From Sorangium aterium (GTDB taxonomy: Bacteria; Myxococcota_A; Polyangia; Polyangiales; Polyangiaceae), in the NCBI RefSeq assembly GCF_028368935.1, contig NZ_JAQNDK010000001.1, forward strand, positions 3,844,001 to 3,908,000: a stretch of DNA of 64,000 bases. Direction: 5' to 3'. Every line of letters begins with the position of its first letter. The stretch's first letter is position 1. The position numbers and the translations under genes were made by a program. The notes under the pieces were generated by a model. It was not told where the DNA came from and searched no databases. It saw only the letters and a list, made by a program, of their open reading frames with translations. Below are positions 42,066-56,152 of this stretch, piece after piece.

Positions 42066-42995
42066 TCATTCGGTGGTGCAGTCGGGCGCCGAGCTCGGGT
42101 CGGCCACCCACGCCGCGAGGCGCGCGGTCCCGGCGTCGCCCCACGCGTCGTGAGCGAGCTGATTGAGCCGGCACCACTCATGGCGCGTCTGCTGGATCGC
42201 GAGCGCCTTCGCCGCGAGGTGCTGCTCGACGCGATCGGTCAAGGAGGTCTTGTCCTTGCTGAGCTCGTCGTGGGTCATCGCCACCGGGGGCGGACAGTGG
42301 TCGCCTGGCTCGTAGTCGACCGTGCCCGAGACAAGGCCGTAGGCGGTCGTCCGCCGCTGGCGGAAGGTCACGATCGCGTACTCCGGGTACGGCGCATCGT
42401 CGTCGCGAGTCACCGCCGTCTCCCTCGGCTTCTTGCCCTGCACGACGATGAAGCCCGTCGAAGGCACGGCGGAGTACGGCGTGAGCGCGGGGAACGCCGT
42501 GAGCGACTGGTCCACGAGGACGTCGCCGCCGAGCTCGACCCAGTTCGTGTGTGCGTAGAAGTCCTGCACCGCGTGAAGCGAACGGGAAAACGCCAGCAAT
42601 GCCAGCGCATCGCCGTCCAGCTGCGCGATGCCCGGGCCCAGCGCCGCCACCGCCTCGGCTTGCTTCTCGGCGATGAAGGCGGCTCCTCCGCTGAAGTTGC
42701 AGTCATCGAAGTGGGCAGCATTGCTGAAGTGGAACTCGGCGTCCGTCGACACATTGCCGATCTTCAGAGCGCTGATCACCGCAGGCTTCAGGAACGACAG
42801 CGCGGCGCTGGTGATCTCCTCGTGGTTCGGCTCCCCGGGCGCCGTTGAAAATGCATCGGCGCTCTCCTCGATCGCCTCGGCTGTTCCAGGCTCGCCGGCG
42901 CAGCCGAGCGTCAGCGAGAACCCCACGACTCCCACGATGAACGCGGCGTGTCGATGTACGTCTTGCAGCATGTCTTGCGGCATGTCTTGCGGCAT
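42066..42995 (-). CDS. Lipoprotein with Het-C / zinc-phospholipase-C-like domain
   Basis: The protein has up to 309 residues. After MPQDMPQDMLQD a signal peptide follows with a lipobox (LTLGCAG, Cys near 32). The domain shows NHEEITSAAL, HFDDCNFSGGAAFI and LHAVQDFYAHTNWVEL: the His/Asp-rich motifs of Het-C and related zinc-dependent phospholipase-C-like proteins (HxxHxxxDFYAHTN pattern). In fungi Het-C controls incompatibility; bacterial members are exported and uncharacterised. Three in-frame ATGs (42995, 42983, 42971) arise from a 12 bp tandem repeat, and none has a clear ribosome site, so the start is uncertain. It is convergent with the DUF4139 gene. Confidence 0.72.
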   Translation of the reverse strand: MPQDMPQDMLQDVHRHAAFIVGVVGFSLTLGCAGEPGTAEAIEESADAFSTAPGEPNHEEITSAALSFLKPAVISALKIGNVSTDAEFHFSNAAHFDDCNFSGGAAFIAEKQAEAVAALGPGIAQLDGDALALLAFSRSLHAVQDFYAHTNWVELGGDVLVDQSLTAFPALTPYSAVPSTGFIVVQGKKPRETAVTRDDDAPYPEYAIVTFRQRRTTAYGLVSGTVDYEPGDHCPPPVAMTHDELSKDKTSLTDRVEQHLAAKALAIQQTRHEWCRLNQLAHDAWGDAGTARLAAWVADPSSAPDCTTE

Positions 42996-46010: not shown

Positions 46011-49000
46011 TCAGGCAATCGGACCGCGCGCCTGGCGGATGCTCTCCGCCATCATCGCCGCGATGCGGCGAGCGAGCGCGTCCACGGCGTCGGCGCGCCC
46101 TTCCACCACGCTGTCGAGCGCGCGCTGGTGGTCGTGGAACAAGCGCACCGTCACGCGGATCGAGCCGTCAGCCGCACGGCGGTAACGCCCCGCCGGACGG
46201 AGCGAATCCGGCACCCCGGTGGCATCGACGAACACGAACGGCGGGGGCTGCGCTTCCGCCAGGCTGCGTAGCGCCTCATCGACGTTCATGCCGAGCGCGA
46301 GCCCGTCGTCCATTTCCTCTTCATCCTGGAACGAGCTGCGCTCGACGAGCGGCAGAGGGACGGCGAGACGGAAGCTCCCGGGCCGCGCCGCGTCGACCGC
46401 TCCGATGACGAAGCTGGACCCTCCCGCGGGCACCGCCAGCAACGGGCGCTGTACGCCGCCGATCCCCTTGGCCAGGAGCGGCACCTGATCCACGACGTAG
46501 TTGTAGAGCTCGCCGACGCCGATGAGGTTGCCCCCGTGCAGCGCCGCTCCGCGCATGCCGGACAGCAGCGCGTAGGTGAGCAACCCCTGCGCATAACGGC
46601 TCGCCTCGTAGCTCACCGCGTCGGCCGCCGCCCCCGCGAGCAGCCACAGCCCGGTTCGGTCTCTCATCCGCTCGAGCACGCGCTGGTAGCTCGACGGCAC
46701 CTCGCGCTCCTCCGTCAGATCCTTGAGGAACCGCCCGGCGTGGCAGGTGTCGAGCAGCACCACCTGCTTGAGCGCCGGCACGCGCTTGATCCACTTTGTC
46801 AATTCCTGGCTAGAGAGCGCGCTGGCGCGCCAGACCACGGGATCGGCGTACGCCCGCTCCACCGCGTCCTGGGTCAGATAATAGAACTCGTCGTCCTTCC
46901 CCTCATTGACCTGCACGCCATGGCCCGACAGATACACCACCAGGACGTCCTCCGACTTCGCGCCTTCGGCCCACCTGAAGGCGGCCTCTATGTTCGCGCG
47001 CGTCGGCCACTCCGCGGTGTCGCCGGAATCCGTGCTCAGCACGTTGACCTTCACGCGGTCCCCGAACAACGGCTCGGCGACGAACCGCAGCGCCTTCCCG
47101 AAGTCCGCGGCGTCCTTACCAGCGTAGGCCAAGCGGAGACTGGGGCCCTGGTACCGCGAGATGCCGACGATGATGCCCCACAGCATGGGCGGCGCGCGCC
47201 CCGGCGTACCGGCCGCCGCGAAGCGCGATTCGCTGCCGCGGCTCGCCAGCACGTCGTCAGCGTCCATCGCCACGACCGTGACTCGATTGCTGGCGTCGCC
47301 TTGGTGCAGGTAGGGGTGGCCGGCGAGCGAGAACTCGAACGAAATCTCGCGAATGGCACCCGTCGCCTCGTCACGGAGCGCGTCGACCCAGAACTCCTGA
47401 CGGCGCCCTTCCGCCGCCAGGAACGGCCGACCAGACTCGTCCTGTGCGAGGCGGCCGACGAGCGCCTCTTTGCCGTTGATGGCGATCTGTATCGTTCCGA
47501 ATCCGCCACCCTGGTCGCGCAGCTCCACGTACAGCGTCGGCCCCTTCTCTTCGCCCCCCAGGATCGTTCGGGCTCCGCTGCCCTGACCACCCAGCTCCAC
47601 GTGCACCGTCGGCCTCCTCGGCCCCCTCTCCAGGATGGTCGTCCTCACCGACGGAAACAGCTTTGGCGCGAGCTGCGTCACAGCGCGCACCGGCTCCGCG
47701 CGGAGCTGCATTTTCTTGGCGAGCAGCGCCGGATCGTAATAACGCAGCTTGAGCTGCGAGAGCGCGAGCGGCTCCAGATCGAGCAGCCAATGGAGCCCCG
47801 CCGCCTCACCATCTTGCGACGTGTCGTAGCGACCCTCGTCGTCAGCGACCGCCCATCTCCTGTCGGCCAGCGAGAGCAGCGTGCACAGCCGCGCTGCGAC
47901 GCCGACCCTCCACAGCTCCACGGTGCCGCTCGCCGTACCGCCGAGCACGAAGCGCCCGTCCGGTGAGAGCGCCGTCGTGGTCGCGTGCGCGATCATCGCG
48001 CCCCACTGGCACTCGGCGGTGAGCAGCCATTGTCCGGGGAGCTGCTTCTCGTCAAGCACGTTCACTTGGCCGTCCCGGTGCGTGAGCAGCCAGCGCCCCA
48101 CCGAGCCCAACCGCTCCACGCGGACCAGAGGATTATTCCGTATGCTCTCGGGCTCGTAATAGCCAATCTCCTCGCCGCTCTGCGCACTGCGAATCACCTG
48201 GCCAGGAAGGATGGCTTCGAGTTCCAGCGAGGGCGTCGGCGCCGGCGCGGGGCGCACCTCGGCGAGCCCGCCGGTTCCGGCGTCCCACACGTGCGCCATC
48301 CCGTCCTCGCGCGCCACTGTGAAGCGGCGCCCATCAGCGGCGAATTCAATCCAGGTCGACGCGAGCCGCATCGCCTTGACCGACCACACCACGTCACCGT
48401 TTACCCAATCTATGGCGTGAAGCGAGCCGTCTGCCATGCCAACCACCAGCAACGTCAACAGCGCCGAAGGCGACAGATCCGCCGCCTGGATCGATCCACC
48501 GATCATGGCGAGCGCCTGCGCGACCGCAGCGCGCGGCGCGGGCGGCCGGGCGTCGAGCTCCCACAGCTGCACCGCCGCTCCGGGCGACACCGTCAAGAGC
48601 AACCGTCCGTCGGTCGAGAGCGCGATCGAGGTCGGCGCGCTCGAGATCGCCAATTCGAGGAGCCGACCCGCGGTGTGCGCGTCCCACACGATCACGACAC
48701 CCGCCGTGTCGAGCGTGGCAACGCGATCGCCGTCAGCAGAGAAGGCGGCGGCCTGCACCGGCGCCGCATGCCCTGAAAGTGCCTGGAGCTGGGCCCCCGT
48801 CCTTGCATTCCAGAGAATAGCGTCGTGATTGGGCCCCTCCGTGAGCACGAGATCGCCGCGCGGCGAGAACGCCGCCACGGTCGCCGTCGCGTCGCTCCGC
48901 TCGCCGAACCGGCGCGCTGCCTCGACCCTCCCCTCCTTGACGGCCCACACGATCGTCTCCGCGCCCGACGTGACGAGCCTCGCACCGTCCGACGAGAACG

Positions 49001-49709
49001 CAGCGAATCGCACCTTGCGCAGCTTGAACGGAGCGTGCAGAGATAGCCACTTCATCTCATCCAGCAGCGGATAACGGATCGCCGCCCCTTCGCCGCCCAC
49101 GACGACCATTTGCCTTCCGTCAGGCGACAGGGCCACGCCGGCCGGATCGCCCATCTTCGCGGAATCAAGCCAGAAGGTGTAGAGCTCGTCACCCGTCGCC
49201 GCGGCCCATGAGATGGCGCGCCCGTCGCCAGCTGCGGTGATCAGCCGCGAGCCGTCGGCGCTGAAAGAGATCAGGCGAATCACGCCGCTGTGTCCCGTCT
49301 GCGCCACCAGCTCTAGCTTCTTGCCGCCCACCAGCGCCACGCGCGACATCCCCGCCGTTGGGCCACCAAGCAGCACTTTGATGAGCGCGCCACCCAACCA
49401 TTTCGCGATCACGATGGCACGAAACAGCCGGTCCTCCTCGCGCGCGTCGCCGCCATCGCGCGCGGCCTTCATTCGCGCGGCCAGATCGATTACCGTGGCG
49501 AGATGCGCCGTCAATCGCTCGATTTTGCGCTGCAGCTCCTCCCGGAGGAAGCGCTCGGTCAGGAGTCTTTTTTCCCCCTTTTTCCGTGCCTCTTCCATCT
49601 CGCGGATGGCCTCGTCGACGAATGCATCACGGACCGAACGTTCCGGCAAATCAACGAACACATGGAGAGTGCCGCACTGGAGGCCATACAGATCATGCCG
49701 GGATATCAT
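46011..49709 (-). CDS. WD40-repeat protein with C-terminal caspase-fold protease domain
   Basis: The protein has 1232 residues from the ATG at 49709 (GAGAGGA 5-6 bases before). Residues 1-~120 are a charged helical region (VRDAFVDEAIREMEEARKKG). Residues ~140-680 are WD40 repeats (HSGVIRLISFSADGSRLITA, PDGRFVLGGTASGTVELW). Residues ~690-830 are a beta-rich connector. Residues ~840-1090 are a caspase/peptidase C14 domain with His930 in YLSGHGVQ and Cys989 in LLDTCHAG, and GIIVGISRYQGPSLRLAYAG at the start. About 140 more residues follow. It is the last gene of a three-protease cluster. There is no signal peptide; the WD40 propeller probably acts as sensor or assembly platform controlling the protease. 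Confidence 0.88.
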   Translation of the reverse strand: MISRHDLYGLQCGTLHVFVDLPERSVRDAFVDEAIREMEEARKKGEKRLLTERFLREELQRKIERLTAHLATVIDLAARMKAARDGGDAREEDRLFRAIVIAKWLGGALIKVLLGGPTAGMSRVALVGGKKLELVAQTGHSGVIRLISFSADGSRLITAAGDGRAISWAAATGDELYTFWLDSAKMGDPAGVALSPDGRQMVVVGGEGAAIRYPLLDEMKWLSLHAPFKLRKVRFAAFSSDGARLVTSGAETIVWAVKEGRVEAARRFGERSDATATVAAFSPRGDLVLTEGPNHDAILWNARTGAQLQALSGHAAPVQAAAFSADGDRVATLDTAGVVIVWDAHTAGRLLELAISSAPTSIALSTDGRLLLTVSPGAAVQLWELDARPPAPRAAVAQALAMIGGSIQAADLSPSALLTLLVVGMADGSLHAIDWVNGDVVWSVKAMRLASTWIEFAADGRRFTVAREDGMAHVWDAGTGGLAEVRPAPAPTPSLELEAILPGQVIRSAQSGEEIGYYEPESIRNNPLVRVERLGSVGRWLLTHRDGQVNVLDEKQLPGQWLLTAECQWGAMIAHATTTALSPDGRFVLGGTASGTVELWRVGVAARLCTLLSLADRRWAVADDEGRYDTSQDGEAAGLHWLLDLEPLALSQLKLRYYDPALLAKKMQLRAEPVRAVTQLAPKLFPSVRTTILERGPRRPTVHVELGGQGSGARTILGGEEKGPTLYVELRDQGGGFGTIQIAINGKEALVGRLAQDESGRPFLAAEGRRQEFWVDALRDEATGAIREISFEFSLAGHPYLHQGDASNRVTVVAMDADDVLASRGSESRFAAAGTPGRAPPMLWGIIVGISRYQGPSLRLAYAGKDAADFGKALRFVAEPLFGDRVKVNVLSTDSGDTAEWPTRANIEAAFRWAEGAKSEDVLVVYLSGHGVQVNEGKDDEFYYLTQDAVERAYADPVVWRASALSSQELTKWIKRVPALKQVVLLDTCHAGRFLKDLTEEREVPSSYQRVLERMRDRTGLWLLAGAAADAVSYEASRYAQGLLTYALLSGMRGAALHGGNLIGVGELYNYVVDQVPLLAKGIGGVQRPLLAVPAGGSSFVIGAVDAARPGSFRLAVPLPLVERSSFQDEEEMDDGLALGMNVDEALRSLAEAQPPPFVFVDATGVPDSLRPAGRYRRAADGSIRVTVRLFHDHQRALDSVVEGRADAVDALARRIAAMMAESIRQARGPIA

Positions 49710-49767
49710 GAGTTCCTCTCTCCCGTGGCCACTCGTCACCGCCCCCCGCCATCGACCCGAAGCCGCT

Positions 49768-51936
49768 CTATTTCGCCGTCATTCGCACCACCACGATGTC
49801 CGCGGTCCAGCGCTCCGATGCGCCGCGCGCGTGCTCGCCCCTTTCCCCGACTCCGCTCGCTATCTCGGCGAAGGACGTATCACGCCTGAGGTAATCGAGC
49901 GACGCTGTGTTGTTCGTCGTCGCGATTGCCACGAAGCGATCCACCCCGAGCGATTGGCCCGCCGCGAGCGTCGCGCACATCGGATCCCCGAGGACGCCGG
50001 AGGAAGACCAGAAGGTCGCGCGGCTCTTCCTTGCGATGAGGTAGCGGCTCGCGTAGATGCTCACGCGCCCCTCGCCGTCGCAATTGATGAGCGTGACCCA
50101 CAGGTCGATGTCCGAGGTATTCTCGATCTGGATACAGTAGCAGTCTCCGAGCGTGATCCACCTGTCGTTCACCGTGTCGAAGCGGCCCGCCTTCACCTCG
50201 TAATTGGGGCGCCTGTCTGGCTGCAGCGCTGGCAACGGCGGGTTCTGGGCCAGCTCCGGCGGCAGCACTCCGATCTGCTTGTTGCAATCGAGGAGCGTCA
50301 TCTGGAGGCAATGCTCTAGATCGGCGCAGTTGCGCGCGATTCGCAGGGGCGCGGCGTAGAGGTAATAGTGCTCCACCAGAGCGACCGCGATGTCCTTGGC
50401 GTCGGCCGGCGGCGCGGTGTTCGCCAGGAAGGGCAGCGTCGGCAGGGGCGGCCCCGGCTCCTCCCCGGTCCCGTAGATGTCGTCGGTGATTGCCCAGGAC
50501 TTGTCCGAGCGCTGCACCACCGTGATCTGGCCCTTGTCCCCCGCCTGCGCGATCTTCAGGAACGGCGAGGCGGCGAGCCGGTTCGCCATCGCCTCGTCGT
50601 GCGGCGCGAGCGCCACGACGAGCTTCGCTGCCTCGCCGGGCCGGATCAATCGACCGCGCATGAGCGCGCTCGGCGGCGGCGAAGGCGGGGGCATCGCAGG
50701 ATCGGCCTTCGCAGACGACGTCGCGGGGGCGGTCGAAATCACGCGAACGAGGCCGATTCGCTCTCTCACATCCTCTGGCGTGCCGACCGGCGGAAACACC
50801 GCCGTCGCGCCTGGCGTCCCTAGCTCCGGATAGAGCGCCACGACCGCGCCTTCGGTGACGCCCACCAGGGATCCCGCGTTGAGTCGATAGGTCGCGCTCG
50901 CCGCATCGAAGGTCACGGAATAGCCGATGTCTCCCTCCTCCGGCGGCCCGCCGAACACCCGTCTCACCGGGGAGCTCGAGAGCCACGGGTGCTGATTCGC
51001 GTTCATCGCCTCCACCTTGGCGACCACCGTGCGCCAGATCTGGCCCCAGCGCAGCTCCGACAGCGTGGTGTCCTCGAGCGCGCTCAGCTGATCCACGAGC
51101 GCGCGCGTGAGCAGGCCATGCGTCTTTTGCTGCCGGCCCGGCGCGGGAGGCTCACCGCCGCTGCCGTCCCACTCGCGGGCCAGCTCGTCGTCGAGGCAGG
51201 CCGCTACCACCATGAAGTCGCCCGCGCCGACGCCCAGCCTCCTCGCGGCACCTCGCTCCCCCGTCGCCGGGGGCGGCGCGACCTCGGGCGGAAGGACGAA
51301 CGGCCGCGGCGACTCGACGAACCGCGGGCGTACCCCCTTCTCCGGCACCTCCCGCGTCGCCCCCGCGGAGAAGCAACAATCGAGCACCACCGTCACGGCC
51401 GGCGTTCGCTCCGCGATCCTCCCGAGCAGCCTGTTCAGCTCCCAATCGAAGAGGAGCCTCTCCGTATACGCCAAATTGCTGTCCGTCGCCAGCAGCGCCT
51501 CGCGATAATAGCGACTGTTGTCCCTCGGATCGATCACCTCGATGCGCGTGCCGTGACCGGAGTGATAGATGAACACCCGGTCGCCCGGCTGCACCTCATC
51601 CCCGAGCGCGGTGAGCGCCGCGATCAGGTTCGCCTGGGTCGGCGCCTGCGTCGGCACCGTCGTCGGCCGCGGCGGGCCGCCGCGCAGGGGGGCGGCGAAC
51701 CGCTTTATCCGGCTCGCCGGCACGCCCAGCCGATTCAGCAGCAACTCCTGGATCTCGTCGATGTCATTGACGCAGCCGAGGAGCTGGGGAACTTCGCCGG
51801 AGTAAACGTCGATACCGATCAGCACCACGTGGAGGCTCGCCGCAGCGCGCTCCGCGCGCGGGGAGAGCGGAATCTCGGGCTGCCTCATCGCCCTGGAAGC
51901 GCGAGGAGCAGCTGGCTTGGTCTTCCTGGTTTTCAT
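49768..51936 (-). CDS. Metacaspase-like protease with DUF4384-like C-terminal domain
   Basis: The protein has 722 residues. The caspase p20-like domain starts at residue ~34 (LHVVLIGIDVYSGEVPQLLG, CVNDIDEIQELL), with catalytic His128 in YHSGHGT and Cys188 in VVLDCCFSAG; the usual His after that Cys is Phe. LLTRALVDQLSALED is the p10-like part. A Pro/Ala-rich linker (~410-440) follows, then a C-terminal beta domain (CYCIQIENTSDIDLWVTLIN, SIYASRYLIARKSRATFW, FVAIATTNNTASLDYL) resembling DUF4384, often paired with caspase or kinase domains in bacteria. No signal peptide. It lies 58 bases before the WD40-caspase gene and ~100 bases after the zincin gene, in the same direction. Confidence 0.87.
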   Translation of the reverse strand: MKTRKTKPAAPRASRAMRQPEIPLSPRAERAAASLHVVLIGIDVYSGEVPQLLGCVNDIDEIQELLLNRLGVPASRIKRFAAPLRGGPPRPTTVPTQAPTQANLIAALTALGDEVQPGDRVFIYHSGHGTRIEVIDPRDNSRYYREALLATDSNLAYTERLLFDWELNRLLGRIAERTPAVTVVLDCCFSAGATREVPEKGVRPRFVESPRPFVLPPEVAPPPATGERGAARRLGVGAGDFMVVAACLDDELAREWDGSGGEPPAPGRQQKTHGLLTRALVDQLSALEDTTLSELRWGQIWRTVVAKVEAMNANQHPWLSSSPVRRVFGGPPEEGDIGYSVTFDAASATYRLNAGSLVGVTEGAVVALYPELGTPGATAVFPPVGTPEDVRERIGLVRVISTAPATSSAKADPAMPPPSPPPSALMRGRLIRPGEAAKLVVALAPHDEAMANRLAASPFLKIAQAGDKGQITVVQRSDKSWAITDDIYGTGEEPGPPLPTLPFLANTAPPADAKDIAVALVEHYYLYAAPLRIARNCADLEHCLQMTLLDCNKQIGVLPPELAQNPPLPALQPDRRPNYEVKAGRFDTVNDRWITLGDCYCIQIENTSDIDLWVTLINCDGEGRVSIYASRYLIARKSRATFWSSSGVLGDPMCATLAAGQSLGVDRFVAIATTNNTASLDYLRRDTSFAEIASGVGERGEHARGASERWTADIVVVRMTAK

Positions 51937-52039
51937 GGCGAACCTTCACAGTCGGGGACTACCGAGCGTCGATCCGCCGCGCGCGACGGACGCGCGCGCG
52001 GCGGACGCCTGCGGCACCAGCGCTCGGCTCGGCTCAGCG

Positions 52040-52822
52040 CTAGGGCTTCGGATATTCGCGCGCGACGAAGGCGTAGTCGCTGTCGCTGATCGTCACTCCG
52101 CCGAGGATCGGTCTCCCGCTCTTCGTGCACTCGCCGGGGATCTGGTAGGCCATGATCGATTCCTCATCGGGCCTGGCCGTGCCGAAGATCGAGCTCTCCT
52201 CGAGCGGCGTCAGCACCTGGAAAATCACGTCTTCTCGGCTCCAGCCCTGGGTCCGCATGAAGTAGGCGATCGTCCTCTCGAAATCGAGGCGCTCGACGAT
52301 CTGCGCGCGGAGGTGCTCGTGCGGGAACCCCAATGTGTGGCCGAACTCGTGTGGAACGACGCGTTCGAACTCGGAATCCGGAGTGTTCAGCGTGAACCCT
52401 TGGAGGTTCATCGTCTGCTGACCCGGGTGGTTGAGGATGTCGATGCCGAGCCACGACCAGTAGCCCCCTTCGCCACGCGCGAGGCGGACGTCCGCGCTCG
52501 CCGCGTAGGACCGCGTCTCGACGAATTGGATATTTCCAGTCCTGTTCCACATGTTCGCGTACGCGAGGATTTTGCGCCGCAGCGCGGGCTCCGGATTGTC
52601 GAGGAAGCCGACGCTGAGCCTCACCCCCGTCTTCGGCCACCGTAGCCTGATGACGAGAGCAAGCCTGCCGTGCTCGGTGGGATCGATGTCCTCGATATTG
52701 AAGCCCGGCGGCAGGTTGTCCGGGCGAACGGCCTTCGCCTGCACGGCCAGCTCCTTCCATTTTTCCGGCGGCGGAAGCTTGGGAATGCAGACCGGGACCT
52801 GACTTGCGAACGAGTTTTTCAT
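52040..52822 (-). CDS. Zincin metalloprotease (astacin-like motif)
   Basis: The protein has 260 residues; GGAGG lies 6-7 bases before the ATG. HEFGHTLGFPHEH at 158-170 is a complete HExxHxxGxxHE zinc site (His158, Glu159, His162, His168), and SIMAYQIP at 222-229 is the Met-turn (Met224). The upstream strands KILAYANMWNRTGNIQFVET and DVRLARGEGGYWSWLGIDIL are typical of M12-type zincins. There is no signal peptide. The N-terminal 60 residues could be a propeptide: Cys12 in PVCIPKLPPP is one of only two Cys and might act as a cysteine switch (inference). It is the first gene of the three-protease cluster and could be a substrate or activator of the caspases. Confidence 0.87.
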   Translation of the reverse strand: MKNSFASQVPVCIPKLPPPEKWKELAVQAKAVRPDNLPPGFNIEDIDPTEHGRLALVIRLRWPKTGVRLSVGFLDNPEPALRRKILAYANMWNRTGNIQFVETRSYAASADVRLARGEGGYWSWLGIDILNHPGQQTMNLQGFTLNTPDSEFERVVPHEFGHTLGFPHEHLRAQIVERLDFERTIAYFMRTQGWSREDVIFQVLTPLEESSIFGTARPDEESIMAYQIPGECTKSGRPILGGVTISDSDYAFVAREYPKP

Positions 52823-53161: not shown

Positions 53162-54104
53162 GAACCTATCCCAGTAGGGAGCACCTGGGATCTTGGGAGA
53201 CTATGTTCAGGAACATGCGGAGGTCCTGGCCAGACGTCTTGACATTGGCACGTGACGCGGCAGCCGCGGCAGATGAAGCAGTTCAAGGATGATGGCTGGA
53301 GGTTGCCCGACGCCATCTGGACAGAGATGGAACCCTACTGCCGCCGCGCAAGGCGCACCCGCTCGGTTGCCATAACCCGCGCGTGCCCGATCGCGTGGCC
53401 ATGGACGCCATCTTCTTCGTCCTCCGGACGGGCTGCCAATGGGGGGCGCTCGATGCGACCGGTATCTGCAGCCATTCCTCAGCGCATCGACGATTCATCG
53501 AGTGGATCGAGGCGGGCGCGTTTCGGGAGTTCTGGCGCCGCGGGCTGCTGGCGTACGATGAGTTCATCGGCATCGACTGGAGCTGGTTGGCGATGGACGG
53601 GGCGATGAGCAAGGCCCCGCTCGGCGGGGAAAAAAACCGGGCCCAACCCCACCGATCGCGCCAAGAGGGGCGCCAAGCGCAGCTTGCTGACAGAGGCGTC
53701 GGGCGTCCCCGTGGGCGTCGCCGTGGCCGGAGCCAATCGCAACGACTTCAAGATGGCGCGCGAGACCATCGAGAGCATCCCGGTCGAACGCCCGCATCCC
53801 AGCGGGCGCAAGCCGCAGGGCATGTGTCTGGACAAAGGGTACGATTACGCTGAAGTACCGGCGCTGCTGAAGGAGTTCGGGTTCACGGCACACATCCGCC
53901 CGCGCGGTGAGGAGGCGCGCGAGATCAAGAAGGAGGCAGGCCGCAGAGCCCGCCGATGGGTCGTCGAGCGTTCCCATAGCTGGATGAACCGCTTTCGGGG
54001 AATCCTCATCCGGTGGTCGAAGCGTGCGGACACCTACCTCGCCCTTCTGCACCTCGCCTGCGGGGTCATCACCTGGCGTGCAGCCGGCCTACTGGGATAG
54101 GCTC
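53162..54104 (+). mobile_element. IS5-family (IS427-type) insertion sequence
   Basis: A 943 bp element. The left end GAACCTATCCCAGTAGG (53162-53178) matches the inverted right end (54088-54104) at 16 of 17 bases. TTA occurs directly outside both ends (53159-53161 and 54105-54107), fitting the TNA target duplication of the IS427 group. One transposase gene fills the element but is broken by two frameshifts, so transposition would need help in trans. Confidence 0.88.
53273..54100 (+). pseudogene. IS5/IS427-type transposase, frameshifted twice
   Basis: Three frames together give a full IS5-type DDE transposase. Frame 1 reads GWRLPDAIWTEMEP. Frame 2 reads PDRVAMDAIFFVLRTGCQWG to WSWLAMDGAMSKAPLGGEK. 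Frame 3 reads LLTEASGVPVGVAVAGANRN, DKGYDYAEV and RRWVVERSHSWMNRFRGILI. The DDE residues fall in MDGAM, LDKGYD and VERSHSW. The first shift (about 53335) looks like loss of one base. The second is an extra A in a run of seven (53630-53636); a homopolymer there could allow slippage, but the first shift still inactivates the gene. Confidence 0.85.
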
Positions 54105-54212: not shown

Positions 54213-55949
54213 CTAGCCGAGCGCCCGCGAGGCGGCCGCGGGGCGGAGGCCCTCTATCAGGGCCGCGCGATAGCGGTGTCGCGCCGCGGAGAGGCGCAGC
54301 GCCTCGCCCTCGTCCGCAAGCGACGCAGCCGCCATCGCCGCGTGACCCAGACGCAGGAGCGTGTAGGCGAGGAGATACGCCGGCAGGCGCCGCTCGGGAT
54401 CATCGCCGGAGCGGCGCCGGTACCGCGCCAGGAAGGCGCGCCGGGCGCCTCGCGGCATCCGCCACTCGACGATGGCGCCGGCGAGATCCCAGGCGATGTC
54501 CGCGGGGCCAGGGAGGAAGTGATCGTCGCCGTGCCCGCAGGCGTCCACCTTGACCAGCTCGCCCGAGGCGGACCTGCGCCACTCGTGGGGATCCATCCTG
54601 CCATCGACGATCACCGGACGCGCGAGCTCCGGGTGGAGCTCACCAGGGAGCTCCCTCCGCATCTCCAGCGAGAAATTGGTGCGTGCCATCGCGATGAGCT
54701 CGTCGGCCGCAGGGCTCGGCACGGGGAAGGCCGAGGCGCGAAAGGCGCAGTAATCGGCCAGGCGCTCGAGCTCCGCGGCGGACAGCTCATCGGCCTGGAG
54801 CGGCCGGCCAGGGAGCCATGGATACGAGAAGAATCCCTGGCCCTCGTCGCGCGGCTCCAGCCCAAAGCCGGCCTGGAAGACGCCGTGAGCCCGCTCCAGA
54901 CACTCGGCCCCGTAGCGGCCCATCCCTTCGAACTTGAGGATCCGGCGTTCGTCCCGGGAAAGGTATTTGAGTCGCTCCATGGATGTCCACGAGGGCGGCC
55001 AGCGCGATTCGTCCTCGTAGCAGCGGCGGCGCCACGCCCCGGCGCCGATGGGCTCGCCCGCGTCTCCGGGGAGCTGCGCCCCGCCCTCGGCGCGCTCCGA
55101 GCGGAAGGACCGCCAGCGGCGGGCGCCGTCCGGCGCGACGAGCGCGTCGGGGTCGGGCGCGCGGGAGCCGAGGAAAACGATGCTCGCGCGCGGGACGCCC
55201 GCGCGAACGAGGGAGTCGCCGGCGGCGAGGAACGAGGAGCCGCTGAGGCCCGGCCCCTCGTCGACGACCCAGAACCGCGCTCCCTCGGCGATGCCGTCCT
55301 CGACCCAGCGGAGCTGCCCGGCATCGAGCTCGACGCGGCGGTCATAGGGGTGACCTGATGGGCGCACGGTCATGCGCCCGGCCCGGATCCTCTGCCGGCG
55401 AAGCGCCGCGGCCGTCACCGCGCTCAGGGTCGTGCCGATGCTGCGGATGCCGACGACCCGGACCGGCGCCGGCGGGGACGCGAGCCGCTCGGCCAGCCGG
55501 GCGGAATCGAGCGGGTGGAGCGCGTAGAACGAGAACCCCTCGGGCGGCGAGGTCGAGACGGTCGCCGGGACCTCGACGGCCATGAGGGCTTCGGGCGTGG
55601 CCAGACGTCTGGCGGGTCGTGGCCAGACGTCTGGCTGTCCATGGTCAGACGTCGGGCCGTCCGCGATCGCGAGCGCGCCCGCGTCGTCACCGCCGATCAG
55701 CGCGGCGGCGAGATCGTCGGTGAGCTGCGCCAGCGCCGAGGCGCCCTCCGCGCCCGCGTCGGTGAGGATGGACTCGAGCTCGCCAGCGCGGATCAAGGCG
55801 CGGAGCACGACGTCGCGAGGGCGCTCCGCGCCTCCGGGGCCGGCGATCGCCTGGAGGTCGACCGCGAGCTCGTCGACGAGCCGCCGCCCCGGGACGTCGC
55901 GGCGGCCGCTGCGGAACACGTACATGCGGTATCCGGAGCTGTCGTCCAT
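54213..55949 (-). CDS. Phosphoribosyltransferase-like domain fused to a kinase-like domain
   Basis: The protein has 578 residues from the ATG at 55949 (GTGGAG 8 bases upstream). The N-terminal ~120 residues are helical. A type I PRTase-like fold follows: VRVVGIRSIGTTLSAVTAAA (~190), RMTVRPSGHPYDR and RFWVVDEGPGLSGSSFLAAG (~255), where VVDEGPGLSGSS occupies the PRPP-loop position (usual consensus VVDDVxTTG). The C-terminal ~270 residues resemble aminoglycoside-phosphotransferase-type kinases: CGHGDDHFLPGPADIAWDLA has the HGD-like catalytic and Asp metal sites. Substrate unknown. An in-frame triple 22 bp repeat encodes the linker near residues 95-120. Confidence 0.72.
   Translation of the reverse strand: MDDSSGYRMYVFRSGRRDVPGRRLVDELAVDLQAIAGPGGAERPRDVVLRALIRAGELESILTDAGAEGASALAQLTDDLAAALIGGDDAGALAIADGPTSDHGQPDVWPRPARRLATPEALMAVEVPATVSTSPPEGFSFYALHPLDSARLAERLASPPAPVRVVGIRSIGTTLSAVTAAALRRQRIRAGRMTVRPSGHPYDRRVELDAGQLRWVEDGIAEGARFWVVDEGPGLSGSSFLAAGDSLVRAGVPRASIVFLGSRAPDPDALVAPDGARRWRSFRSERAEGGAQLPGDAGEPIGAGAWRRRCYEDESRWPPSWTSMERLKYLSRDERRILKFEGMGRYGAECLERAHGVFQAGFGLEPRDEGQGFFSYPWLPGRPLQADELSAAELERLADYCAFRASAFPVPSPAADELIAMARTNFSLEMRRELPGELHPELARPVIVDGRMDPHEWRRSASGELVKVDACGHGDDHFLPGPADIAWDLAGAIVEWRMPRGARRAFLARYRRRSGDDPERRLPAYLLAYTLLRLGHAAMAAASLADEGEALRLSAARHRYRAALIEGLRPAAASRALG
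55598..55663. repeat. Three 22 bp direct repeats with internal palindrome, inside a gene
   Basis: Units at 55598, 55620 and 55642 share TGG-CAGACGTC-GGC. The first two contain the perfect 14 bp palindrome GCCAGACGTCTGGC. Because 3 x 22 is a multiple of 3, the array keeps the host frame. The 13-mer TGGCCAGACGTCT also occurs at 53227-53239 inside the IS5-type element. Confidence 0.7.
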
Positions 55950-56152
55950 GGCGGGCTCCACGCCTCCCCGATGCGCGACGCGCGACCCGCGCCGCTCGCG
56001 GGCCTTCCCAGCGGTAACGTCATGGAACCGGCTCGTCAAGCCGCCGGCCTCGTGCGTGGAGGGAAGCGACGGGCCTGACTCGGTCGTGGCTGGGGGCCGG
56101 CAAAAGGAGCAGCGCGAGCGGCTCCGGCGCCATCACCCGTCGAGGACTTCGC

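What the first reader, a model, noticed from the sequence alone, without database searches (positions are those of the whole stretch)
46011..52822. Three-protease cluster: zincin, metacaspase-like and WD40-caspase genes in a row
Seen: three same-strand genes encode a zinc protease with a complete HExxHxxGxxHE site, a caspase with His128/Cys188, and a WD40-caspase with His930/Cys989; none has a signal peptide, and gaps are only ~58 and ~103 bases. Known: caspase-fold proteins fused to WD40 or beta domains occur in multicellular bacteria and are linked to regulated death or conflict systems. Inference: the cluster is a proteolytic cascade, with the WD40 protein as sensor or scaffold, a caspase cleaving its partners, and the zincin (Cys12 near its N-terminus as a possible switch) as executioner or substrate. 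I know of no described system with exactly this trio.
Basis: partly seen in the sequence, partly recalled or inferred. Interest (0 to 1): 0.8.

Follow-up and report, generated by a model that had tools for sequence, protein, structure and literature searches.

The report
Caspase genes beside a latent metalloprotease
A soil myxobacterium carries, side by side, a metalloprotease that appears to be locked by a built-in cysteine and caspase-like proteases that could unlock it; similar pairings recur in unrelated bacteria, which suggests a bacterial protease cascade that has not been described in the papers found.

Summary
Three minus-strand genes encode an M12A (astacin-like) zincin (52822-52040), a caspase (51936-49768) and a WD40-caspase (49709-46011), with the residues and gaps stated. 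The exact trio was found only in this strain: homologs of the WD40-caspase elsewhere have no zincin nearby, and the cluster is absent at the matching site in four congeners. The zincin-caspase pairing is not accidental. The genome has only 9 caspase-domain genes; both of its zincin loci touch one, and each carries two. Similar zincins sit next to caspase or CHAT genes in other Myxococcota and an alphaproteobacterium; a cyanobacterium has zincin, caspase and caspase-STAND-WD40 in one locus. The linked zincins are scattered on the family tree (about 7 changes). Cys12 is conserved in 61 of 68 homologs, and the nearest solved relative, myroilysin, is a proven cysteine-switch zymogen. An Arg at the maturation site occurs in 8 of 8 clan-CD-linked zincins against 26 of 86 others (not phylogeny-corrected). 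The caspase has the S1 acids of Arg/Lys-specific metacaspases. Best model: the caspase cleaves after Arg53 and frees an intracellular zincin; the WD40-caspase is sensor or initiator. The cascade is inferred, not shown. New variant of known protease-driven conflict systems.

The parts
52040..52822 (-). Gene 1: myroilysin-like M12A zincin, 260 aa, no signal peptide; predicted cysteine-switch zymogen
52787..52789 (-). Cys12 codon: predicted cysteine-switch ligand of the active-site zinc
   Evidence: C at this column in 61 of 68 homologs; invariant in A4; predicted N-terminal strand 12-15 in the AF2 model
52664..52666 (-). Arg53 codon: predicted activation cleavage site (Arg53|Leu54), nine residues before Trp62
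   Evidence: the mature myroilysin chain 5zjk begins just after the aligned Arg; Arg in 8/8 clan-CD-linked vs 26/86 other zincins
52316..52351 (-). Zinc site HEFGHTLGFPHE (residues 158-169)
   Evidence: catalytic residues invariant in 68 homologs (the homologs were picked by this motif)
52145..52159 (-). Met-turn SIMAY (residues 222-226) with conserved Tyr226
51973..52005 (-). GC-rich hairpin (about 13 bp) between zincin and caspase genes; no T-tract
   Evidence: z -1.1, not unusual for this composition
49768..51936 (-). Gene 2: caspase-fold (C14, orthocaspase/metacaspase-like) protease, 722 aa, with uncharacterised beta-rich C-terminal region
51553..51555 (-). catalytic His128
51373..51375 (-). 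catalytic Cys188; two residues after Asp186 (predicted S1 acid)
   Evidence: S1 residues C55, D58, D186 invariant in A5
46011..49709 (-). Gene 3: WD40 repeats + C-terminal C14 caspase, 1232 aa from the ATG at 49709 (alternative GTG start 49739)
46743..46745 (-). catalytic Cys989 (ATG numbering) of gene 3, motif DTCHAG
53684..54100 (+). DDE transposase fragment (IS element) upstream of the zincin, between the cluster and the conserved gene at 54213
   Evidence: cluster absent beside the same conserved gene in four congeners

Best explanation
The locus is a caspase-controlled metalloprotease module. The zincin is made in the cytoplasm as a latent zymogen: its N-terminal segment lies in the active-site cleft and Cys12 occupies the zinc (cysteine switch). 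The neighbouring caspase, whose S1 pocket predicts cutting after Arg/Lys, is activated by a stress or invader signal and cleaves the zincin at about Arg53-Leu54, releasing the prosegment and an active endopeptidase that executes damaging proteolysis (regulated death or dormancy, or destruction of an invader's proteins). The WD40-caspase is an interchangeable sensor or initiator caspase; in this genome's other cluster and in a cyanobacterial locus its place is taken by caspases fused to TPR or nSTAND-WD40. Shown here: gene content, recurrence of the pairing, conservation of the Cys, homology to a proven cysteine-switch zymogen, presence of S1 acids and of Arg at the maturation site. Inferred: direction of cleavage, scaffold role, and death or defence as outcome.
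For: Both zincins of this genome adjoin a caspase gene although only 9 caspase-domain genes exist. Adjacent zincin-C14 or zincin-CHAT genes in S. cellulosum So0157-2, G398, G370 (decayed) and G380, and a Rhodospirillaceae MAG; a cyanobacterium has zincin, caspase and caspase-nSTAND-WD40 in one locus. C14 is the commonest Pfam family among the next genes examined (4 of 64; a list that included known linked loci). Linked zincins are scattered on the tree, about 7 changes. Cys12 conserved in 61/68; a few members have no other cysteine, so a disulfide cannot be its role there. Best structural match is myroilysin (Z 22.8), pro-myroilysin aligned from residue 7; [quoted passage not shown] Mature myroilysin starts after the Arg aligned with Arg53; Arg in 8/8 clan-CD-linked vs 26/86 others. 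P0002 C55, D58, D186 invariant in 11 homologs and correspond by motif to TbMCA2 Cys92, Asp95, Asp211 (PMC4357240, PMC6426788).
Against: Most zincins of this family have no caspase neighbour. The Arg correlation was noticed after the fact; corrected for phylogeny it is concordant in every informative pair but not significant (median p 0.125, 5 pairs). In the cyanobacterium three genes separate zincin and caspase. In So0157-2 zincin and caspase are convergent, not co-transcribed. A GC-rich hairpin lies between genes 1 and 2 and no promoter could be called. No coordinates were available to measure the Cys12-zinc distance in the model, and the structural alignment did not show Cys12 over myroilysin's switch cysteine.
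Confidence: 0.45

Rival explanations
1. Reverse cascade: the zincin is the upstream activator (its Cys switch opened by oxidation or another protease) and it processes the caspases, as trypsins are proposed to release nuclease effectors in NucA-trypsin systems.
For: Zincins sit next to effector genes without any caspase: non-specific endonuclease in a Bacteroidia MAG (L138), Tle1-like phospholipase in Nitrospira; the NucA-trypsin precedent (PMC7159879).
Against: Arg at the zincin's own maturation site tracks linkage to clan CD peptidases; caspase-fold enzymes with scaffold repeats usually sit upstream (general knowledge).
Confidence: 0.2
2. The zincin is a toxin delivered to other cells by a contractile injection system (T6SS or eCIS), kept latent in the producer by the Cys switch; the caspases are neighbours in a shared accessory region or act in the producer's own response.
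For: VgrG-like genes upstream of relatives in L110 and L114, Tle1-like effectors next to relatives in Nitrospira, a LysM domain on the cyanobacterial zincin, an Ntox1 toxin gene near the So0157-2 pair; no signal peptide.
Against: No secretion genes were recognised among the genes examined around the window cluster or the C4 cluster; caspase adjacency arises repeatedly.
Confidence: 0.2
3. Chance clustering of accessory genes around an IS element; no functional link between the three proteins.
For: The exact trio was found nowhere else, the WD40-caspase is not zincin-linked elsewhere, a transposase lies next door and the cluster is absent at the site in relatives.
Against: With 9 caspase genes in roughly 11,000 (estimate), both zincins touching one by chance is about 1e-6 to 1e-5; the pairing recurs in at least three phyla on scattered branches.
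Confidence: 0.12

Closest known systems
Myroilysin (Myroides; M12A astacin, PDB 5gwd/5czw/5zjk)
   Same: Best PDB match by sequence (E 2e-24; 6.7e-89 with the family profile) and by fold (Z 22.8); HExxHxxGxxHE, SIMxY; proven cysteine switch (PMC9848320); maturation after an aligned Arg
   Different: Myroilysin is a secreted elastase (PMC4377995 abstract); the window zincin has no signal peptide and lies beside caspases
Orthocaspases / type I metacaspases (C14B; e.g. TbMCA2, AtMCA4, GSU0716)
   Same: C14 fold, His-Cys dyad, acidic S1 residues; Foldseek hits AtMCA4, AtMCA9, GSU0716 and TbMCA2
   Different: Long beta-rich C-terminal region without a Pfam match; substrate unknown
WD40-metacaspases and multi-metacaspase operons (Asplund-Samuelsson 2012, PMC3501461)
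   Same: WD40 in 10.9% of bacterial metacaspases; 20 operons with more than one metacaspase, including Deltaproteobacteria
   Different: No zinc protease partner turned up in a text search of that paper; gene 3 has WD40 at the N-terminus and caspase at the C-terminus
EAD, EACC1-caspase, NucA-trypsin and MoxR-vWA conflict systems (Kaur 2020, 2021)
   Same: Caspase or trypsin proposed to release effectors; typical of multicellular bacteria; metallopeptidase effectors mentioned as rare; zincin relatives occur beside trypsin-EAD1 and CHAT genes
   Different: No EAD, EACC1, MoxR, vWA or STAND gene was recognised among the genes examined near the window cluster; a cysteine-switch astacin as caspase partner was not found described there
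TPR-CHAT / Craspase, bacterial gasdermin proteases
   Same: Clan CD protease gated by a sensor cleaves a partner (PMC9729208 abstract; gasdermins from general knowledge)
   Different: No CRISPR gRAMP or gasdermin gene recognised nearby; partner here is itself a protease

Membership tests
M12A astacin, myroilysin type | HExxHxxGxxHE zinc site and SxMxY Met-turn | tested here: met
M12A astacin, myroilysin type | astacin fold and profile score | tested here: met
   Pfam Astacin 23.9 bits over 22.5; 5zjk Z 22.8, rmsd 2.0 over 198 residues
M12A astacin, myroilysin type | N-terminal cysteine switch | tested here: inconclusive
   Cys conserved 61/68 and prosegment modelled as ordered, but zinc ligation itself not measurable
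C14 orthocaspase/metacaspase | His-Cys dyad and C14 profile above cut-off | tested here: met
   for gene 2; for gene 3
C14 orthocaspase/metacaspase | acidic S1 pocket (Arg/Lys specificity) | tested here: met
   gene 2: C55, D58, D186 invariant in A5; residue roles from PMC4357240; mapped by motif, not by superposition
C14 orthocaspase/metacaspase | cleavage after basic residues | not testable with these tools
   needs enzyme assay
EACC1-caspase two-gene system | EACC1-type caspase by curated model (NF047832, cut-off 140 bits) | tested here: not met
   35.1 bits for gene 2, 77.3 for gene 3
EAD / MoxR-vWA ternary systems | EAD domain or MoxR, vWA, VMAP or iSTAND genes | tested here: inconclusive
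   no such Pfam hit in the three proteins or six neighbouring ORFs scanned (one has a VWA7 N-terminal domain, not a vWA domain); the whole window was not scanned; Trypsin-EAD1 and a weak iSTAND hit occur beside the So0157-2 pair
PADLOC defence systems | membership of a listed system | tested here: inconclusive
   genes 2 and 3 hit the generic 'caspase' model, gene 1 hits nothing at E 0.01

The most novel reading that the evidence does not exclude
Bacteria repeatedly and independently coupled caspase-fold proteases (C14 or CHAT) to a cysteine-switch astacin zymogen, giving an intracellular two-class protease cascade in which a scaffold-bound initiator caspase and an executioner caspase unlock a metalloprotease.
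Probability: 0.33. Interest if true: 0.8.

Novelty: new variant of a known kind. Interest (0 to 1): 0.6.

Why it matters
The natural substrates of most bacterial caspase-like proteases are unknown (general knowledge). This pairing names a concrete candidate with a predicted cut site (Arg53) and a built-in read-out (release of Cys12 latency), so the question can be tested with purified proteins. If true, it would be a proteolytic cascade from a caspase to a metalloprotease zymogen in bacteria, reached several times independently.

Tried and rejected
Whole-trio conservation: rejected, WD40-caspase homologs L203-L207 have no zincin nearby (some of those contigs are short). 'The zincin family always goes with caspases': rejected, most of the zincin loci examined lack them. 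EACC1 membership: below cut-off. Sigma-70 promoters and intrinsic terminators: no informative hits. Intergenic hairpin as a special RNA element: z -1.1, not unusual for composition. Phylogeny-corrected test of the Arg correlation: concordant but underpowered. Reading the original myroilysin paper: not held. NCBIfam 'beta-glucuronidase AbsR1' hits on the zincin family are far below cut-off (38 to 141 of 650 bits) and were not followed.

Full report
Observation. The three ORFs are real, on the minus strand, in the order zincin (52822-52040), caspase (51936-49768), WD40-caspase (49709-46011; GTG alternative 49739). Gaps are 103 and 58 bp. None of the proteins has an evident signal peptide.

Gene 1. 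Pfam calls it Astacin just above its cut-off. The closest solved protein is myroilysin by sequence (E 2.1e-24; 6.7e-89 with the family profile) and by fold (AF2 model pLDDT 89, pTM 0.89; Foldseek E 8.8e-18; VIA-align Z 22.8). Pro-myroilysin aligns from model residue 7. [quoted passage not shown] In 68 zincin sequences the column of Cys12 is Cys in 61, gap in 6, His in 1. A few members have only one cysteine in all, so a disulfide is excluded for them. The spacing of the Cys from the catalytic domain varies widely, as expected of a plug rather than a core residue (inference).

Maturation site. In myroilysin the mature chain (5zjk) starts directly after an Arg that aligns with Arg53 of gene 1, nine residues before the near-invariant Trp62 (assuming the deposited chain begins at the natural mature end). 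Among the zincins collected, Arg at this place occurs in 8 of 8 that lie with a C14 or CHAT gene and in 26 of 86 others (Fisher p 1.6e-4). The test was post hoc and not corrected for descent; independent pairs on the tree agree in every informative case but are too few (median p 0.125). Zincins next to trypsins (L131, L133, L161) have Glu there, not Arg.

Gene 2. C14 (E 2.6e-17). Eleven aligned sequences share His128, Cys188 and the S1 residues C55, D58, D186, equivalent by motif to TbMCA2 Cys92, Asp95, Asp211 that accommodate basic P1 residues (PMC4357240, PMC6426788). The AF2 model (pLDDT 72) matches metacaspases. The stretch 189-239 between the catalytic halves is predicted disordered and holds several Arg, as for a self-processed linker (inference). 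The C-terminal region has no Pfam match.

Gene 3. WD40 repeats followed by C14. The non-WD40 part finds good homologs (36-48% identity) in three Myxococcota genomes, five loci, none with a zincin in the stretch examined.

Recurrence of the pairing. (a) Same genome, C4:234-240 kb (L043): C14-TPR-C14 gene, zincin, caspase, all on one strand; its zincin and caspase are only about 30-32% identical to those of the window, so this is not a recent copy. (b) So0157-2 (L045): zincin, a CHAT gene 51 bp upstream on the same strand, convergent caspase 105 bp away, plus Trypsin-EAD1 and a weak iSTAND hit. (c) G398: zincin followed by an overlapping C14 gene; G370: decayed version of a zincin with a C14-like remnant; G380: zincin followed by CHAT after 20 bp. 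(d) Rhodospirillaceae MAG (L086): second zincin 3 bp before a C14 gene. (e) Pseudanabaenaceae cyanobacterium LEGE 13415 (L139): zincin, an unknown gene, a C39-like peptidase gene, a LuxR-type regulator, a caspase related to gene 2, and a caspase-nSTAND-WD40 gene, all on one strand.

Against chance. PF00656 finds 9 caspase genes in the whole genome; 4 lie in the two zincin clusters. With roughly 11,000 genes (estimated from genome size) the chance that one zincin touches a caspase gene is about 0.0016, and for both about 3e-6. On a tree of 87 zincins the linked ones fall on scattered branches (7 changes of label); the window zincin is nearest to one from Sphingomonas, not to those of its own genus. 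So linkage arose repeatedly. Most zincins, however, have other neighbours, so the link is a property of some lineages, not of the family.

Genomic setting. A transposase ORF lies between the zincin and a gene conserved in the genus (54213-56039). In four congeners that gene is present (70-81% identity) without the cluster beside it: the cluster is accessory.

Comparison. Kaur et al. 2020 and 2021 describe conflict systems of multicellular bacteria in which caspases or trypsins are proposed to release effectors, and mention metallopeptidase effectors as rare. Asplund-Samuelsson 2012 reports WD40-metacaspases and multi-metacaspase operons. No paper found describes a cysteine-switch astacin as a caspase partner (searches; open-access library only). 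Hence: new variant of a known kind.

Verdict. The functional link of zincin and caspase is likely (about 0.7). The direction caspase-to-zincin is the best reading (0.45). The outcome (death, defence, development) is open.

Noticed in passing
L133:9926-13523 and L161:8857-13711: In Paenibacillus oralis and Sporosarcina globispora the zincin adjoins a trypsin - Exo_endo_phos - Endonuclease I fusion protein (in L161 also a second trypsin gene), resembling the NucA-trypsin conflict systems.
   Followed up: partly
L131:3641-5603: Actinomadura rifamycini: a Trypsin_2 protein with EAD1 lies just before the zincin.
   Followed up: partly
L129:3333-6264, L132:1201-4158, L110:7789-11692, L114:1682-5586: Zincin relatives next to Tle1-like phospholipase genes in Nitrospira and downstream of VgrG-like genes in Bacteroidia: some may be injected effectors.
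   Followed up: partly
L138:9803-11704: Bacteroidia MAG: zincin followed after 6 bp by a non-specific endonuclease gene.
   Followed up: no
L139:707-1555: The cyanobacterial zincin carries a C-terminal LysM domain although it has no evident signal peptide.
   Followed up: no
L045:1418-5728: A 1436-aa protein with an Ntox1 toxin domain lies about 2.3 kb from the caspase gene in S. cellulosum So0157-2.
   Followed up: no
L164:9313-11205: The G370 zincin-caspase pair appears to be decaying (split frames), so the module can be lost.
   Followed up: partly
L180:10056-15200 and L181:1605-7642: Genome G263 has several caspase-like genes in tandem, two of them related to gene 2, without a zincin in the stretches read.
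   Followed up: no
window 42066-42995 (-): Protein with VWA7 N-terminal domain and a weak Het-C match.
   Followed up: no
zincin family (P0001, L043, L045, L139): NCBIfam hits to 'beta-glucuronidase AbsR1' (NF050131), far below cut-off: that model seems to contain an astacin-like region.
   Followed up: no
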